Assembly: GCA_946402705.1 (NCBI GenBank)
Contig: CAMIXG010000008.1
Coordinates: forward strand, 1 to 58,035
Direction: 5' to 3'
From: an uncultured Tissierellia bacterium
GTDB lineage: Bacteria > Bacillota > Clostridia > Tissierellales > Tissierellaceae
Length of the DNA stretch: 58,035 nt
The position numbers and the translations under genes were made by a program. Under the pieces are notes generated by a model. That model saw only the letters and a program-made list of their open reading frames with translations. It had not been told where the DNA came from and made no database searches. This document shows, in pieces, positions 25,745-31,213 of this stretch (the first letter of the stretch is position 1; every line of letters begins with the position of its first letter).

Positions 25745-26530
25745 TTATTTTAAATTTTGTATGTTTTCATAGCCACAAGTAAATCTATTTAATTCCTTTG
25801 AATAAGTTAGTTTTATATTTATATCATATAAATCTTTTAAACTATTTTCACTTATTAAGTCTTGAGGACTTCCAAATGAGAATTTTGATTTATTAAGTAT
25901 GGCAACATAATTTTCAAGCATAAAAATATGATCTGGATTATGGGTTGTATAGATTATAATAAAACCTTTTTTTGATAGATTATGTATTATTTCAAGGGTT
26001 TTAAACTGGCTTCCAAAGTCCAGGTGATTAGTTGGTTCATCTAGTATTATTATATCTGGATTTTGAACTAAGACCCTAGCCATACTAGCCTTTTGCATTT
26101 CTCCCCCACTTATTTGCCTATAGGACTTGTTTTCTATATTTTCTATACCAAAGATTGATATAGCTTCGTCTACTAATTCCTTATCTTTTTTACCAGGTCT
26201 TTCATAAAAATTAAGATAAGGAGTTCTGCCCATCATAACATATTCTCTAACAGTAAAGTCATAGGTTGGAGATGTAATCTGCTGAACATAGCCGATTTTT
26301 TTAGCCAGTTCTCTAGCAGGGATATCCTCTATATTTACACCATCTAAAATGATTTCACCAGTTTTTGGTTTAAGGTATGATGATATACAGTTTAAGAGTG
26401 TGGATTTACCAGTTCCGTTAGGTCCTAAGATTCCAAGGACATCACCCTTATTTAAAGTAAAATTTATATTTTCAAATATATTATTTTTATTATCATAGGA
26501 AAAGGCTAAGTTTTTCACTGTTAGTTTCAT
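25745..26530 (-). CDS. BtuD/FepC-type ABC transporter ATPase
   Basis: 261 residues: GPNGTGKST (Walker A), YVQQITSPTYDFTVREYVMM (Q-loop region of the iron-siderophore/cobalamin/haem family), signature ISGGEMQKASMARVL, Walker B IIILDEPTNHLD and H-loop TTHNPDH. Signature position two is Ser-Gly-Gly-Glu, normal for FepC. It overlaps the permease gene by four bases (ATGA). Last gene of the riboswitch operon, so it probably powers corrinoid or related chelate uptake. Confidence 0.9.
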   Translation of the reverse strand: MKLTVKNLAFSYDNKNNIFENINFTLNKGDVLGILGPNGTGKSTLLNCISSYLKPKTGEIILDGVNIEDIPARELAKKIGYVQQITSPTYDFTVREYVMMGRTPYLNFYERPGKKDKELVDEAISIFGIENIENKSYRQISGGEMQKASMARVLVQNPDIIILDEPTNHLDFGSQFKTLEIIHNLSKKGFIIIYTTHNPDHIFMLENYVAILNKSKFSFGSPQDLISENSLKDLYDINIKLTYSKELNRFTCGYENIQNLK

Positions 26531-27543
26531 TTAATATTCATCCTTTGTTTGTAAAGTAAGTAAAGGTAAAATGGTGCTCCAACCAAACCTGTTAGTATAG
26601 TAATTGGTAATTCTGTAGATGAGATACTTCTGGATAAAGTATCTATTAAAAGTAAAAATGAGCCTCCAAATATAAAACTAAGAGGTAGTAATTTACTATT
26701 ATCAGGACCAATCAATATTCTGCAAAAATGTGGAATAACAAGTCCTATCCAACCAATGGTACCAGCTATACACACAGATGATGCAGTTAAGAAGGTAGAA
26801 GAAATTATGATTATTATTTTAAAGACTTTAGTATTTATGCCAAGAGAACTAGCCTCTTTATCACCCAAGGATAGTATATTGATTTTCCAGCTTAGCATGA
26901 TTAGGATACTGGAAAAAATTATTATAACTGGTACTAGAAAATATAGATTATCTATGGATACCTTGGCCAAGCTTCCCATTTGCCAATAAACTATTTCAGG
27001 TAGTTGGGTTTCAGAGTCTGCCATATATTTAATAAGACCCATAAATGAAGTCGTTATCCCAGATACAATTATCCCAGATAATACTAAGATTAAGTCTGAA
27101 GAAAACCTTAATAGTTTAGGTATATAACTAGTTATCATAACAGCTATAATGCCTCCTAAAAAAGAAGCTACTTGAACTCCTAAGACATTGAAATTTAGTA
27201 AAATAGCTATGCCTGCCCCTACAGCAGCACCAGAGGATACACCCAGCATATCTGGTGAGACTAAAGGGTTTTTAAATACACCCTGATAGCTGGCACCAGA
27301 CATAGCTAAAGCTGCACCTACAAAAAGTGCAGCGAGAGCCCTAGGTAGTCTTAGCTTAAAGAGTATAGCTGAAGATTTATCTACAATACCACTATTAGTT
27401 CCAAAAACTTTGGAGATTAGTAACTTGCTCACAGATATAATATTCAAATCATACCTACCAGTTGATAAACTCCATAAAAATATAAGAATTAGAACTCCTA
27501 GTGAGGATAATAAAACTAAAGTATAATTTTTATTTCTAAGCAT
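26527..27543 (-). CDS. BtuC/FecCD-type ABC permease
   Basis: 338 residues with about ten membrane helices. Typical FecCD motifs: LRLPRALAALFVGAALAMSG, the following YQGVFKNPLVSPDMLGVSSG, and the coupling segment TIGWIGLVIPHFCRILIGPD. Transports vitamin B12, haem or ferric siderophores in this family. Context (cobalamin-type riboswitch) favours a corrinoid. Lies between binding protein and ATPase. Confidence 0.92.
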   Translation of the reverse strand: MLRNKNYTLVLLSSLGVLILIFLWSLSTGRYDLNIISVSKLLISKVFGTNSGIVDKSSAILFKLRLPRALAALFVGAALAMSGASYQGVFKNPLVSPDMLGVSSGAAVGAGIAILLNFNVLGVQVASFLGGIIAVMITSYIPKLLRFSSDLILVLSGIIVSGITTSFMGLIKYMADSETQLPEIVYWQMGSLAKVSIDNLYFLVPVIIIFSSILIMLSWKINILSLGDKEASSLGINTKVFKIIIIISSTFLTASSVCIAGTIGWIGLVIPHFCRILIGPDNSKLLPLSFIFGGSFLLLIDTLSRSISSTELPITILTGLVGAPFYLYLLYKQRMNIK

Positions 27544-27553
27544 TTAATCACCA

Positions 27554-28642
27554 TTAATTAGTTTTTATGTCAGTATTAACTTGAGAGTTTAAAATAATTT
27601 TAACTTGTTCATCATTTAACTCAAAGTTATAAAAGTTTTTGTAGAAATCTTTAAGTTCTGCATCCAGATCTAAGTCTGCAAAAATTTCAGGTTGTTGAAC
27701 TTTTGCCATCCACATCATCATAAGTGGAGTTTCAGCACATGGTGCGTCCCATCTATAAGTTCCAATAGGAGTCTTATATACCTTGTTATCTTGTACAGCC
27801 TTTACTTGAGTCCAGTCTTGACCTTCAATTTCATTGTTTTTTATATTATCAACTGTAAAATCATCAAAGTTGCTTAGGTAAATCATTTCAGGATTCCATT
27901 TTATAACCTGCTCCATATTTACAGAAGTTTTATCTTTTACATGTACAGCCACATTTTTACCACCAGTTTTATCAAATAATAATTGGTTTACACTTTTTTC
28001 TCCAAAGATAGTTAACTCTTTATCTCTTAGATAAAGAACTTCTGGCATAGCTTTAAAGTCAGAAGTCTTAGTTTTTTCATCAAAATATGAGATAGTGTCT
28101 TGATGATATTTTACAAGTTTTGCAGCTTGCTCTTCCTTATTTAAAACCTTACCAAGTAAAGTCATACCTTCTTGTAGAGTGTCAAGATTGTCATATTTTA
28201 TGGCAAGGGCAGGTATACCTAGTTCTCCAAGTTTTTTAATTTCTTCTTCTTGATAATCCCAAACTACAACTAAATCAGGATTAAGTTCTGCCATGGCTTC
28301 CATATTGATTGAAAAGTCCTTGCCAATAATATCTGTATTTATTTCTCCAAATTCTTTGGAAATAGTTGGTAAAAAACTGATTTCATAAGATTTAAGGGCA
28401 GACGGGTTCATAGCAACAATTCTGTCAGCACTTCCATCTAAAGTATACATTAGAGATGCCCAAGGTATTGGAGTTATAGCAACAGATTGAATATCTTTTT
28501 TCATAGTTACTTCATTACCAGCCATGTCTATAAGGGTTTGCGTTTCTATACTTTCTTCTTTTGGTGCGGGTTCTGTTTTACCACAAGCAGTGGCAAGGAT
28601 ACTTATTACTAATAAACTAAGTATAATTATTTTCTTTTTCAT
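27554..28642 (-). CDS. BtuF/FepB-type substrate-binding lipoprotein
   Basis: 362 residues, lipobox LATAC. Class III binding-protein fold with a single helical backbone: DMAGNEVTMKKDIQSVAITP, then LNPDLVVVWDYQ, and QVKAVQDNKVYKTPIGTYRW near the end. Captures a chelate or corrinoid outside the cell for the BtuCD-like pair. It sits 11 bases after the NifK-like gene, so the transporter is part of the nitrogenase-like operon. Ligand cannot be read from sequence; haem and siderophore remain alternatives. Confidence 0.88.
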   Translation of the reverse strand: MKKKIIILSLLVISILATACGKTEPAPKEESIETQTLIDMAGNEVTMKKDIQSVAITPIPWASLMYTLDGSADRIVAMNPSALKSYEISFLPTISKEFGEINTDIIGKDFSINMEAMAELNPDLVVVWDYQEEEIKKLGELGIPALAIKYDNLDTLQEGMTLLGKVLNKEEQAAKLVKYHQDTISYFDEKTKTSDFKAMPEVLYLRDKELTIFGEKSVNQLLFDKTGGKNVAVHVKDKTSVNMEQVIKWNPEMIYLSNFDDFTVDNIKNNEIEGQDWTQVKAVQDNKVYKTPIGTYRWDAPCAETPLMMMWMAKVQQPEIFADLDLDAELKDFYKNFYNFELNDEQVKIILNSQVNTDIKTN

Positions 28643-28653
28643 GATACACTCTC

Positions 28654-29715
28654 CTAAATAAATTTTTTAAAGTAGTCCAGACCATCTTGGCCAATTAGAC
28701 TATATTTTATATTTGAAAAATATCTGCCAGATAGTCCAACATAGGGAACTGGAATAAATATTTTTTCATCAAGTTTATAAAGTTTGCTAAATAATACATC
28801 AGCTACTAGGATATCTGATTTACTTATAGCCGCTTGTAAATCAGTTTCTTCAATGGAAGAGATAGCTTTGTCGCAAGTAAAATTTGGATTATTTTTAGCA
28901 GACTTAAGTTCTGATTTTAAAGATAAGATTTCTATATTCTCAAATCCAAAGTCATTTTCAAAGGATTTTGCTAGGGCTAAACTAGTGGTATATTCTCCTA
29001 TTATAAGGACTTTTTCATCTCTCTTATTAGGGCACTTATCATACTTATAATTTAAACCTAGAGAGTTTAAAAGTTTATAAACACCATACTTTCCTATGGG
29101 ATAACCATAGATTTTATTTTGAAAATCATTATCAGCTTCTGGGTTTAAAATAAGGGAGTATTCACCATCCTTGTAGAGGTTTTTACTTCCCAAAAGTTCT
29201 AAGTCAAAGTTATAGGACTTTAGTAGGGCTATAAGTGGATTTAGAAGTTCTTTACTACCATAGGCAAGTTCGGTAAAGCCTACAATTTGAATTTTATTTT
29301 TTACCATTTCAGCACTACCAAATAGATTTTTTGACTTAAAAAAAGCCTTTATTCCTGATTTATAATCCTTAAAACCATTGGTCTTTATATGAAAGACAGG
29401 TTTGTTTGATTTCAAGACTATACTAGAATAATCAGCCCCAACCATTTCTGTAAGGGGAGTTGATATAAGGATGATATCCTTGTTAGTATCTAGGGCATTT
29501 ATTGATGATATCAGTTTATCTTCAGTCCCAAAGTTAAAGTCTAAATCATCAAATCTAGTCTTTAAATAGCTATAGTTTGTGTCAAGTTCATTAAGTTTTC
29601 TATGAGGGGCATCGCAGCCACCAGGTGTATAGACAATTGGCTCGAGATTCATAAGTTTACAAATACTCAAAACACCAGATATATCTGATGCTAGAGGAGG
29701 TAGTAGTTTATTCAT
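28654..29715 (-). CDS. NifK/BchB-like oxidoreductase component 1, large subunit
   Basis: 353 residues. ATG 29715 has GGAGG upstream and overlaps the short NifD-like gene by eight bases; the in-frame ATG at 29730 is rejected. Nitrogenase component 1 motifs: PLASDISGVLSI, YTPGGCDAPH with Cys34 (the cluster-ligand position of NifK, Asp in BchB), LDFNFGTEDKLISSI (as VFGG.E.L...I) and ISTPLTEMVGADY, where the usual STC cysteine is replaced by Pro. The later two-thirds show Rossmann-like domains (VLIIGEYTTSLALAKSF). Works presumably with the 153-residue and NifH-like proteins as a reductase of an unknown substrate. Confidence 0.82.
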   Translation of the reverse strand: MNKLLPPLASDISGVLSICKLMNLEPIVYTPGGCDAPHRKLNELDTNYSYLKTRFDDLDFNFGTEDKLISSINALDTNKDIILISTPLTEMVGADYSSIVLKSNKPVFHIKTNGFKDYKSGIKAFFKSKNLFGSAEMVKNKIQIVGFTELAYGSKELLNPLIALLKSYNFDLELLGSKNLYKDGEYSLILNPEADNDFQNKIYGYPIGKYGVYKLLNSLGLNYKYDKCPNKRDEKVLIIGEYTTSLALAKSFENDFGFENIEILSLKSELKSAKNNPNFTCDKAISSIEETDLQAAISKSDILVADVLFSKLYKLDEKIFIPVPYVGLSGRYFSNIKYSLIGQDGLDYFKKFI

Positions 29716-30169
29716 ACTCAGCACCTCCAAGTTTTATTATTTCATCTTCTATTTCAAATAATCTAGTCCTAATATCCTGACCTCTCTTAGCCATAGGACC
29801 TCGTTTTAATAAGATTAGATTAAGATTTTCTTCTTTAAGTTTTTTTATAAGAGAGTCATAATCAGTGCCAGATACAAGGTCCATACAGGAAAGGTAGATT
29901 AAAATTACATCATTTTTTCCAGTAGCCATTCTTCTTGCAGTTTCTTCAACCCTAGTTATATGGCTTCCAAAAGTAAAGTCTATCTTACTAAGCTCTATAA
30001 AGTTAAATCTATCCAAGTAATTATGGTCTAGCGCCTGAAAATATAGGTGTCTAATACAAATAGGTGCTCCAATAGCTAGAAGTTTAACATTTTTGAATTT
30101 TAGGAGTGAAAAAGCGCCAACCAAGTTGTTATCTTCACATTCTCCTAAAAATATACAGTTGTTTTCCAT
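29708..30169 (-). CDS. Short NifD/BchN-like component 1 subunit (N-terminal domain only)
   Basis: Only 153 residues, while NifD/BchN proteins usually exceed 400. It carries the first domain alone: GECEDNNLVGA (Cys11), GAPICIRH (Cys38), KIDFTFGSHITRVEETARR and YLSCMDLVSGTDY (Cys95). These three cysteines have nearly the spacing of the three BchN/ChlN cluster ligands. With Cys34 of the neighbouring large subunit they could bind one [4Fe-4S] cluster at the interface. AGGAGG precedes the start. The frame ends cleanly, overlapping the next gene, so it is a real short subunit, not a broken one. Confidence 0.8.
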   Translation of the reverse strand: MENNCIFLGECEDNNLVGAFSLLKFKNVKLLAIGAPICIRHLYFQALDHNYLDRFNFIELSKIDFTFGSHITRVEETARRMATGKNDVILIYLSCMDLVSGTDYDSLIKKLKEENLNLILLKRGPMAKRGQDIRTRLFEIEDEIIKLGGAEYE

Positions 30170-30177
30170 ATGGCCTC

Positions 30178-30984
30178 CTATATCTGTAGCATTTGTTCTC
30201 TGATTAGTTCTAGTCCATTTTCATCAAGAGGTTTTGGATTAAGATTTTCTTGATTATTAAAGACTAAGGATGACAAATCATCAAAAAAACTAGTTTCAAA
30301 AACTTCAGCCATAGTTTTTCTCATAAGCTCAACCCTTCTAAGGTCATTATCAAGTGGAACATTATACACTATTCTTCCATCTACAGAATCTACAAACTCT
30401 TTTAAAATATGAAATTCTTTATCACTGCTATGCTTATTAAGTATAAAGCCTCCGAATAGAGGAGCGTCTTTAGTAGAATATCTCTCCACTGACTTTAAAA
30501 TATTATTTGCAGCATAGATAGACATAAACTCTGAACTAGTAACAATATATACTTCGTCTATATAACTATCTCTCATAGGCACTGCAAAGCCACCGCAAAC
30601 AACATCGCCTAAAACATCATATACAATTAGGTCCCAGTCCAAATCAAAAACTTCCAGTTCTTCCAAAAGTTCTAAGGTTGAAGAAATTCCAATTCCAGCA
30701 CAACCAATTCCAGCCACTGGGCCACCAGATTCTATACAGTATACACCCGTAGGACTTTTAAACATTATATCTTCTATTTCTACATCTTCACCACTTTGTA
30801 AAAGCTCAAGTACAGTGGGTATTTTTATAGATGTTAAATTTCTAGTTGAATCAGCTTTGGGATCACATCCTATATGCAAAACTTTCTTACCAGCCTTGGC
30901 AAGGGATGATGATATATTTGATGATATGGTAGATTTCCCAATTCCACCTTTTCCATAAAATGCAATTCTCTTAGGTTTATTCAT
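30178..30984 (-). CDS. NifH/BchL-like ATP-dependent iron-sulfur reductase
   Basis: 268 residues from ATG 30984 (AGGGAGG upstream; the ATG at 31008 lies in the terminator's T-tract and is rejected). P-loop GKGGIGKST (11-19), CDPKADSTR (40-48), cluster ligands Cys95 in AGIGCAGIGI and Cys130 in DVLGDVVCGGFAVP, so the dimer can hold one [4Fe-4S]. The Arg that follows GCAG in true NifH (ADP-ribosylation site) is Ile. It donates electrons with ATP hydrolysis to component 1, here the two genes that follow. No nifEBN, no molybdenum genes and a truncated partner argue against nitrogen fixation. Confidence 0.92.
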   Translation of the reverse strand: MNKPKRIAFYGKGGIGKSTISSNISSSLAKAGKKVLHIGCDPKADSTRNLTSIKIPTVLELLQSGEDVEIEDIMFKSPTGVYCIESGGPVAGIGCAGIGISSTLELLEELEVFDLDWDLIVYDVLGDVVCGGFAVPMRDSYIDEVYIVTSSEFMSIYAANNILKSVERYSTKDAPLFGGFILNKHSSDKEFHILKEFVDSVDGRIVYNVPLDNDLRRVELMRKTMAEVFETSFFDDLSSLVFNNQENLNPKPLDENGLELIREQMLQI

Positions 30985-31008
30985 TTTGTCCTCCCTATTA
31001 TTGAGCAT

Positions 31009-31033
31009 AAAAAAAGACTGAACAAATCAGCCT
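31009..31033 (-). terminator. Riboswitch-controlled intrinsic terminator
   Basis: Minus-strand stem AGGCTGA/TCAGTCT (one G-U) with loop TTTGT is followed by a run of T. It lies between the aptamer (31076-31160) and the ribosome binding site of the NifH-like gene, so it is the likely expression platform: premature termination when ligand is bound. Confidence 0.75.
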
Positions 31034-31038
31034 CTAAT

Positions 31039-31067
31039 ATTTAAAAACTAGTTCCGAATTTTTAAAT
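31039..31067 (-). promoter_or_regulatory. Linker hairpin between aptamer and terminator
   Basis: ATTTAAAAA/TTTTTAAAT arms with an 11-base loop TTCGGAACTAG. Position matches the loop-13 hairpin that forms a kissing contact with L5 in cobalamin riboswitches, but I did not find convincing loop complementarity. Confidence 0.4.
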
Positions 31068-31075
31068 AGCCCACA

Positions 31076-31160
31076 ATTGTAGTAGGTAACCAGACTTAAG
31101 CTTTCGCTTTTACTGTGCCGACTGCGTATAGGATTTTAACCTATTTCCCCTAACTACAAT
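31076..31160 (-). promoter_or_regulatory. Cobalamin-type riboswitch (compact variant)
   Basis: Minus strand. A closing stem pairs ATTGTAGTTAGG (31160-31149) with CCTACTACAAT (31086-31076). Inside are the conserved cobalamin blocks in order: GGGGAAATAGGTT, AAAATCCTA, ACGCAGTCGGCACAGTAA, a small AGC-GAAA-GCT stem and AAGTCTGGTTACCTAC. These match GGGAA..GGTGAAAATCC..CGGCACTGTAA..AAGTCxGGxxACC. At about 85 nt it lacks the peripheral P7-P11 domain, as in small AdoCbl-variant/Cbl-II forms. A terminator follows before the NifH-like gene. Confidence 0.85.
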
Positions 31161-31184
31161 ATTATTCAATTATCACTTAATAAG

Positions 31185-31213
31185 AATATAACAAAAATCA
31201 TAGTTAAAATCAA
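31185..31213 (-). promoter_or_regulatory. Promoter of the riboswitch/nitrogenase-like operon
   Basis: Minus strand TTGATT (31213-31208), 17-bp spacer, TATATT (31190-31185). Transcription would begin near 31178, about 18 nt before the aptamer. Confidence 0.65.

What the first reader, a model, noticed from the sequence alone, without database searches (positions are those of the whole stretch)
25745..31213. Cobalamin-riboswitch operon joining a stripped-down nitrogenase-like reductase to a BtuFCD-type importer
Seen: a compact cobalamin-type aptamer and terminator, then NifH-like, 153-residue NifD-like, 353-residue NifK-like, BtuF-, BtuC- and BtuD-type genes, tightly spaced or overlapping. Known: nitrogenase-like enzymes BchLNB and CfbCD reduce tetrapyrroles; corrinoids are tetrapyrroles; cobalamin riboswitches repress B12 uptake and synthesis. 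Inference: the operon imports a corrinoid (or precursor) and reduces or remodels its ring, or removes or reduces the cobalt ligand, giving a nitrogenase-type corrinoid reductase. I know of no described enzyme of this kind.
Basis: partly seen in the sequence, partly recalled or inferred. Interest (0 to 1): 0.93.

Follow-up and report, generated by a model that had tools for sequence, protein, structure and literature searches.

The report
B12-controlled nitrogenase-like corrinoid import operon
A bacterial operon headed by an RNA element that matches vitamin B12 riboswitches joins a nutrient importer to a cut-down relative of nitrogenase, and it likely imports B12-like molecules and would reduce them with ATP-driven electrons, a task for which we found no described nitrogenase relative.

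Summary
On the minus strand (31173 to 25745) a cobalamin-riboswitch aptamer (RF01482, 49.0 bits, one under gathering) and a terminator precede six tight genes: NifH-like, 153-aa NifD-like, 353-aa NifK-like, solute-binding protein, FecCD permease, ATPase. The short D is the N-terminal domain of full-length NifD-like relatives. The same stripped D+K, fused, occurs in Eubacterium, Acetobacterium and one genome of the window's family; all 10 genomes examined (8 from one family) carry a cobalamin riboswitch at the operon head. Of 15 full-length-D sister operons with leader present, 2 do, both of one Acetobacterium type. Models match the tetrapyrrole reductase DPOR best. Fourteen of 15 strong binding-protein hits lie beside nitrogenase-like genes, so the reductase probably acts on the imported ligand.

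Weaker points: no ligand or activity is known; 'BtuF' is a loose label (some sister binding proteins follow Mo/W riboswitches); one genome has a Nik-type importer instead; 9 of 10 genomes make corrin de novo. Best reading: a B12-repressed importer plus ATP-driven reductase for a cobalt ligand, most likely a corrinoid. New variant of a known kind.

The parts
31185..31213 (-). promoter-like site (TTGATT, 17 nt, TATATT, with TG before the -10)
   Evidence: consensus match only, number of such sites no higher than in shuffles
31034..31173 (-). cobalamin (AdoCbl-type) riboswitch aptamer
   Evidence: RF01482 49.0 bits, E 4.1e-8 in 451 bases, gathering 50; whole-genome search agrees
31013..31035 (-). 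terminator-like stem of the riboswitch expression platform
   Evidence: 9-pair stem, 5-nt loop, T run; present in the minimum-energy fold
30178..30984 (-). NifH-like Fe protein (268 aa from the ATG with a ribosome-binding site; the ORF extends to 31008)
   Evidence: PF00142 294 bits; nearest solved chains are nitrogenase Fe proteins, then BchL; start
29708..30169 (-). stripped NifD-like protein, 153 aa, N-terminal domain only, two invariant Cys (38, 95)
28654..29715 (-). NifK-like protein, 353 aa from ATG
27554..28642 (-). lipoprotein-type solute-binding protein, FecB/BtuF superfamily
   Evidence: PF01497 72 bits; 43-46% identical to the binding proteins of seven Eubacterium/Acetobacterium operons; PDB 4ovk 346 bits
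26527..27543 (-). FecCD-type permease
   Evidence: PF01032 282 bits
25745..26530 (-). ABC transporter ATPase
   Evidence: PF00005 120 bits

Best explanation
The operon couples an ABC importer to a stripped-down nitrogenase-like reductase under a leader that matches cobalamin riboswitches, and it likely takes up a corrinoid when B12 is short and would reduce it inside the cell with ATP-driven, low-potential electrons. Step by step: B12 bound to the leader is predicted to terminate transcription (aptamer and terminator seen in the sequence; switching inferred). When B12 is scarce, binding protein, permease and ATPase would import a ligand (families shown; ligand inferred to be a corrinoid or another cobalt complex). 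The NifH-like protein, with its P-loop and conserved cysteines, would hand electrons on ATP hydrolysis to the D-K pair (inferred from the superfamily). D keeps only the N-terminal domain and K all three domains (K by its alignment to whole DPOR B), with two invariant Cys in D and one in K, so the pair is predicted to hold one iron-sulfur cluster at its interface. Loss of the rest of D would leave that cluster more open, which suits a bulky substrate such as a corrinoid (inference). The product could be Co(I) for adenosylation, a reduced ring, or a ligand made ready for remodelling; which one is open.
Confidence: 0.5

Rival explanations
1. Cobalt salvage from a non-corrinoid chelate: the importer takes up a cobalt complex (cobaltophore or similar) and the nitrogenase-like pair reduces it so that cobalt is released for B12 synthesis.
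For: Binding protein scores better against metal or oxyanion binders (CeuE, HI_1472) than BtuF; weaker sisters partly behind Mo/W riboswitches (3 of 8); in G454 the partner importer is Nik/Cnt-type; 9 of 10 genomes have corrin synthesis genes and need cobalt; full-length-D relatives sit beside DUF364/DUF4213 'heavy-metal chelation' genes (L136, L137).
Against: G454 lacks CbiD and CbiJ, so it has no evident use for cobalt in corrin synthesis; an ATP-driven nitrogenase-like enzyme seems excessive for reducing a metal chelate (inference); the window genome already has two CbiM-type cobalt systems by sequence reading.
Confidence: 0.22
2. B12-independent stand-in: the reductase replaces a B12-dependent reaction and is therefore repressed by B12, the importer bringing its substrate.
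For: Cobalamin riboswitches are known (recalled) to repress B12-independent isozymes; the isethionate reductase shows that nitrogenase-like enzymes can be paired with importers of small non-tetrapyrrole substrates (PMC11423573, passages).
Against: FecBCD-type importers carry metal chelates, corrinoids, haem and similar ligands rather than small metabolites (recalled); no radical SAM B gene lies in the set, unlike Isr, Mar and Nfa (gene lists).
Confidence: 0.1
3. Iron or haem acquisition: the importer carries a siderophore or haem and the reductase frees iron or opens the macrocycle.
For: Same transporter superfamily; IsdE and siderophore models score as well as or better than BtuF for the binding protein.
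Against: Cobalamin riboswitch in 10 of 10 stripped operons; no iron-responsive RNA at gathering in the scanned loci (Fur boxes were not searched).
Confidence: 0.08
4. The importer supplies cobalt or another metal for the reductase's own metallocofactor rather than its substrate.
For: Some sister binding proteins stand behind Mo/W riboswitches; full-length-D relatives lie beside [FeFe] or [NiFe] hydrogenase maturases, so cofactor assembly is a theme in the wider family.
Against: D lacks the later domains, which help to hold nitrogenase's large cofactor (recalled); no maturase gene lies in the ten stripped operons.
Confidence: 0.06

Closest known systems
DPOR (BchLNB/ChlLNB), dark-operative protochlorophyllide reductase
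   Different: D is about one third the size; NifH-like scores 219 bits against BchL's cut-off of 345; B12 riboswitch and importer instead of chlorophyll genes
[quoted passage not shown]
   Same: Nitrogenase-like, acts on a tetrapyrrole close to corrinoids; NifH-like scores 288 bits to CfbC
   Different: Below CfbC's cut-off of 402; CfbD is a homodimer without a K homologue (PMC11423573, passages)
IsrBHDK isethionate reductase and MarBHDK methylthio-alkane reductase
   Same: Group IV nitrogenase-like; Isr is co-induced with the SsuABC importer, and an ssu disruption abolished growth on the substrate (PMC11423573, passages)
   Different: Both have a radical SAM B gene; SsuABC-type importer; sulfur regulation
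BtuFCD vitamin B12 importer
   Same: Same superfamily and gene order of binding protein, FecCD permease and ATPase; B12 riboswitch control is typical (recalled)
   Different: All three below the BtuF, BtuC, BtuD cut-offs (31.7/234, 215.5/461, 111.8/281 bits); binding protein scores higher with 4ovk, HI_1472, CeuE
Full-length-D NifHDK plus FecBCD-type operons of Clostridia (for example L053, L055, L057, L069, L079, L157)
   Same: Same gene content and related proteins; two invariant Cys in D and one in K shared
   Different: D of about 400-445 aa; cobalamin riboswitch in only 2 of 15 with leader present; some beside HydE/HydF/TM1266

Membership tests
Cobalamin riboswitch (RF01482/RF00174) | covariance-model score at or above Rfam's gathering score in the window | tested here: inconclusive
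   49.0 bits against 50, E 4.1e-8 in 451 bases
Cobalamin riboswitch (RF01482/RF00174) | same element above gathering at the head of the other stripped operons | tested here: met
   9 of 9, 53.9-69 bits
Cobalamin riboswitch (RF01482/RF00174) | binds a cobalamin and switches expression | not testable with these tools
   needs in-line probing or a reporter
Nitrogenase superfamily | NifH-type Fe protein with P-loop and two conserved cluster cysteines | tested here: met
   PF00142 294 bits; GKGGIGKS, GIGCAG and DVVCGG conserved in the 5 rows (role of the motifs recalled)
Nitrogenase superfamily | component 1 pair related to NifD and NifK | tested here: met
   K PF00148 over cut-off; D by hhalign 98.2% to NifD-like relatives; folds
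Nitrogenase proper (NifHDK) | full-length D subunit | tested here: not met
   D is 153 aa and matches only columns 31-164 of 439
Nitrogenase proper (NifHDK) | nifH equivalog cut-off | tested here: not met
   296 against 394 bits
DPOR (BchLNB) | BchL equivalog cut-off | tested here: not met
   219 against 345 bits
CfbCD | CfbC cut-off | tested here: not met
   288 against 402 bits
MarBHDK / IsrBHDK | radical SAM B gene in the set | tested here: not met
   no further gene in the window operon or in the nine relatives' operons
BtuFCD | BtuF, BtuC and BtuD equivalog cut-offs | tested here: not met
   31.7/234, 215.5/461, 111.8/281 bits
BtuFCD | transports corrinoids | not testable with these tools
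   needs binding or uptake assays

The most novel reading that the evidence does not exclude
This is the first nitrogenase-superfamily enzyme dedicated to vitamin B12 chemistry: a minimal reductase, with D cut down to its cluster-binding domain, that is switched on by B12 shortage together with its own importer and uses NifH-type ATP hydrolysis to reduce imported corrinoids, either to Co(I) or in the ring, for salvage.
Probability: 0.38. Interest if true: 0.9.

Novelty: new variant of a known kind. Interest (0 to 1): 0.76.

Why it matters
Nitrogenase relatives are known to reduce N2, chlorophyll precursors, a nickel tetrapyrrole and sulfur compounds. A B12-riboswitch-controlled member would add cobalt-corrin chemistry to that list, with the shortest NifD-like subunit seen here. 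It also offers a candidate for how strict anaerobes and acetogens, which depend on corrinoids, generate the very low potential needed to activate imported ones. E. callanderi and Acetobacterium species carry the operon, and genetic protocols for such strains exist in print (titles in the listing), so the idea is directly testable.

Tried and rejected
Broken-gene reading of the short D: rejected, since the D part ends at about the same place in the fused proteins of two families, and the cluster of the window's K is represented by a 98% identical protein from 6 contigs. Replacement of CbiJ (precorrin-6A reductase): rejected, since G000 and eight of the nine other stripped genomes have CbiJ. 'Absence of cob genes' as support: holds in G454 only. 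Phmmer with K alone found 4 proteins and with D alone only the window's own; the alignment search found 19 clusters at E<=1e-20, scoring only the 7994 candidates with most shared words, so the single-sequence rarity was a limit of the search. RF00174 in whole genomes misses the window's aptamer; RF01482 finds it. The genome-contig scan gave 4 loci out of 20 stretches, its peptide patterns being strict. Leader fold z-score is only -1.8 with 9 of 200 shuffles as good, so folding energy alone does not prove the riboswitch. CfbD did not appear in the structure lists; they are second looks at Foldseek hits, so this shows nothing.

Rows dropped and caps: from the full-length riboswitch contrast I left out L056 (contig starts inside the operon) and L139 (a D-like gene and importers but no NifH found); L077, L078 and L084 (NifHDK-like sets, not counted as importer operons) have no cobalamin riboswitch either. 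A late check added L157, a second full-length type with the riboswitch, which changed the count from 1 of 14 to 2 of 15. One search scored at most 5 candidates per genome, so its counts are lower bounds; of its 12 weaker hits 8 were fetched, none with nitrogenase-like genes. Against a clean cut at 200 bits: in Eubacteriaceae, binding proteins of 138-188 bits also stand beside nitrogenase-like genes (G572, G574, G583, G090).

Literature: full-text searches; no listed title or abstract opening describes this operon, but lists were capped (for example 20 of 268) and only open-licence PMC papers are covered. PMC11423573 and PMC10418091 were read as passages; all others were seen as search listings only.
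Full report
WHAT IS THERE. The six genes lie on the minus strand at the given coordinates and are tightly spaced or overlapping. The leader holds a full-length match to the AdoCbl riboswitch model RF01482 at 31034-31173, 49.0 bits, E 4.1e-8 for 451 bases, one bit below gathering. The more general model RF00174 does not report it although it reports 13 other elements in the same genome. A terminator-like stem with T run follows at 31035-31013 and appears in the minimum-energy fold, whose energy is only modestly better than shuffles (z -1.8). The NifH start is best put at 30984, after a GGGAGGA site, because the ATG at 31008 abuts the terminator's T run.

WHAT THE PROTEINS ARE. NifH-like: PF00142 294 bits, similar scores to the nifH (296) and CfbC (288) models and less to BchL (219), below each of their cut-offs. 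K: PF00148 30.5 bits against 28.6. D has no Pfam match alone, but its alignment (9 rows) aligns over 131 columns with the N-terminal part (31-164 of 439) of an alignment of 11 full-length NifD-like relatives, probability 98.2%. D's Cys38 and Cys95 are invariant (9 of 9 rows) and correspond to two invariant Cys (43, 103) of the full-length set. K has one Cys invariant in 15 of 15 rows, and the fused set has it in 12 of 12. From recalled nitrogenase structure these positions are cluster ligands; a fourth ligand is not evident.

STRUCTURE. The fused DK of L066 was modelled with 12 rows (pLDDT 81.7, pTM 0.82). The 11 best PDB entries by Z are all DPOR subunit B (31.7 to 30.8, 348-353 residues, rmsd about 3), followed by NifN (29.8) and by K-type subunits of iron, vanadium and molybdenum nitrogenase and methylthio-alkane reductase (28.8 to 27.8). 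These entries are several structures of a few proteins, and rows within 1 of each other are tied. The window's own D (pLDDT 77.3) gives DPOR subunit N as its five best entries (10.2 to 9.2, 135-136 residues), then methylthio-alkane reductase (9.1), with unrelated folds from 7.9 down; Foldseek's E-values for it are weak (2.4e-3 at best). So both halves look most like a tetrapyrrole reductase, with the later part of D missing.

RELATIVES. A class-wide search of 391 genomes with the K alignment found 54 with a match at E<=0.001. Reading 32 neighbourhoods shows a family of NifH-D-K plus binding protein, permease and ATPase operons in Clostridia, mostly with a long D. The stripped form, fused into one protein of 514-538 aa, was found in G296 and G385, in G454 of the window's own family (199 genomes of the order) and in 8 of 40 genomes of the family of G385, these two among them. 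The protein search with the alignment listed 19 clusters at E<=1e-20, the named ones from Acetobacterium, Eubacterium and a Dehalobacterium MAG; P0004 is from a Synergistaceae MAG. In a quick NifH tree of 42 rows the window groups with the eight Eubacteriaceae (SH-aLRT 97), while G454's NifH is a long branch and one stripped group has support of only 53.

REGULATION. Every stripped operon examined has a cobalamin riboswitch at its head: window, G296 and G385, G571, G572, G584, G590, G591, G592 (four again) and G454 (RF01482 53.9 bits), so 10 of 10 genomes, 8 of them from one family. In the Eubacteriaceae the element ends 110-136 nt from the NifH P-loop motif, in the window 68 nt. In G454 it heads seven co-directional genes that overlap or lie within 25 nt: a Nik/Cnt-type importer of five genes, then NifH and fused DK. 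Of the full-length-D operons with NifH, D, K and their leader in the sequence, 13 have no cobalamin riboswitch at gathering (L053, L054, L055, L057, L062, L064, L069, L072; L076, L081, L136, L137; L059) and 2 have one (L079, 100.5 bits; L157, 101.4 bits). Those two are one type from two genomes of the Acetobacterium genus, so cobalamin control also reached a full-length form. The best-scoring model differs (RF01482 in window and G454, RF00174 in Eubacteriaceae), which suggests that control by cobalamin was kept or regained rather than copied as one block (inference).

IMPORTER AND REDUCTASE BELONG TOGETHER. The binding protein of the window is 43-46% identical to seven from Eubacteriaceae operons, more than D+K (24% to the Eubacterium protein). 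In 391 genomes 15 hits to the binding-protein alignment reach 200 bits; 14 lie beside NifH, D or K genes and the fifteenth (G259) is near a contig end (contexts). Three of the 15 come from the query's own operons, leaving 11 of 12. Below lie 12 hits of 157-182 bits; of 8 fetched none has the nitrogenase-like genes and 3 have a molybdenum/tungsten riboswitch in front. In Eubacteriaceae, however, binding proteins of 138-188 bits stand beside full-length nitrogenase-like genes. By solved structures the window's protein is closest to 4ovk, then HI_1472 and CeuE, with BtuF far down the list. So the partnership is strong, but the label BtuF is loose and the ligand could be another cobalt complex.

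CORRINOID OR COBALT. Nine of 10 stripped genomes have both CbiD and CbiJ; G454 (96% complete) has neither. The window genome's operon includes genes reading as cbiP, cbiB, cbiL, cobD, cbiK, cbiA, cbiC, cbiD, cbiE, cbiT, cbiF, cbiG, cbiH and cbiJ (only CbiD, CbiJ and CbiK were checked by profile, and CbiK is below its equivalog cut-off). G454 argues for an imported corrinoid rather than cobalt for synthesis, while its Nik/Cnt-type importer argues the other way. The window genome carries SLH-anchored DUF4430 surface proteins near cobalamin riboswitches, a domain related to transcobalamin (recalled), so it seems to collect corrinoids although it can make them.

COFACTOR. No gene beyond H, D/K and importer genes lies in the ten operons. 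Of 6 genomes searched for NifB, G000 (87% complete), G454, G385 and G591 have none over cut-off, G296 and G572 have one far away. The Isr, Mar and Nfa systems each have a radical SAM B gene, while Cfb does not (PMC11423573, passages). This fits a simple cluster as in the tetrapyrrole reductases (recalled). The same paper is a precedent for a nitrogenase-like enzyme working on what a co-induced importer brings in.

VERDICT. That the reductase works on an imported corrinoid is the best single reading (about 0.4 for the corrinoid-reductase version, 0.5 for the broader statement), not a demonstrated one.

Noticed in passing
L058 3573-14567 and similar in L061, L063, L065, L068, L070, L071, L073, L074, L138: NifHDK-like sets lie around [NiFe]-hydrogenase maturation genes hypF, hypD and hypE (checked by profile in L058; the others only by gene size and order). 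A nitrogenase-like system tied to Fe(CN)2CO-making genes looks unusual.
   Followed up: partly
L054 901-1938, L069 5430-6488 and 12898-14448, L072, L062, L064: Full-length-D NifHDK operons lie beside [FeFe]-hydrogenase maturases HydE (L054) and HydF and the TM1266-type regulator (L069) by profile; the other loci only by reading.
   Followed up: partly
L136 3160-6926, L137 6487-7251: In two genomes of the Acetobacterium genus full-length NifHDK genes sit with several FecBCD importers, DUF364/DUF4213 'heavy-metal chelation' proteins and a MoeA-like gene (L136).
   Followed up: partly
L157 2059-8529 and L079 5489-12016: A second, full-length-D nitrogenase-like operon with importer is also headed by a cobalamin riboswitch; G572 carries both this and the stripped operon.
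   Followed up: partly
L016 846-1019 and 1088-1264 (window genome, contig C20): Two cobalamin riboswitches in tandem stand ahead of htpG (profile 688 bits), an unexpected target for B12 control.
   Followed up: no
L142 4189-15114, L143 2486-6745 (window genome, contig C5): Three cobalamin riboswitches are near large surface proteins, two of which have SLH and DUF4430 domains, possibly cell-surface corrinoid catchers.
   Followed up: partly
L144 7722-9967, L018 2141-5967 (window genome): Further FecBCD-type importers under cobalamin riboswitches carry accessory enzymes: a methyltransferase and a SagB-type dehydrogenase.
   Followed up: no
L022 9450-10670 (window genome, contig C1): An orphan nitrogenase component 1-like protein of 406 aa (PF00148 105 bits) has no NifH neighbour in the stretch read.
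   Followed up: no
L150 6977-7096, L154 3817-3936, L155 7254-7388: FecB-type binding proteins stand behind molybdenum/tungsten riboswitches, candidates for Mo or W importers of the FecBCD type.
   Followed up: no
L066 5957-6955, L060 11723-12655: A divergently transcribed LysR-type regulator flanks the operon in both Eubacterium and Acetobacterium (PF00126 in L066; L060 by reading).
   Followed up: no
L087 12602-12702: An azaaromatic (yjdF) riboswitch lies just downstream of the A. bakii operon.
   Followed up: no
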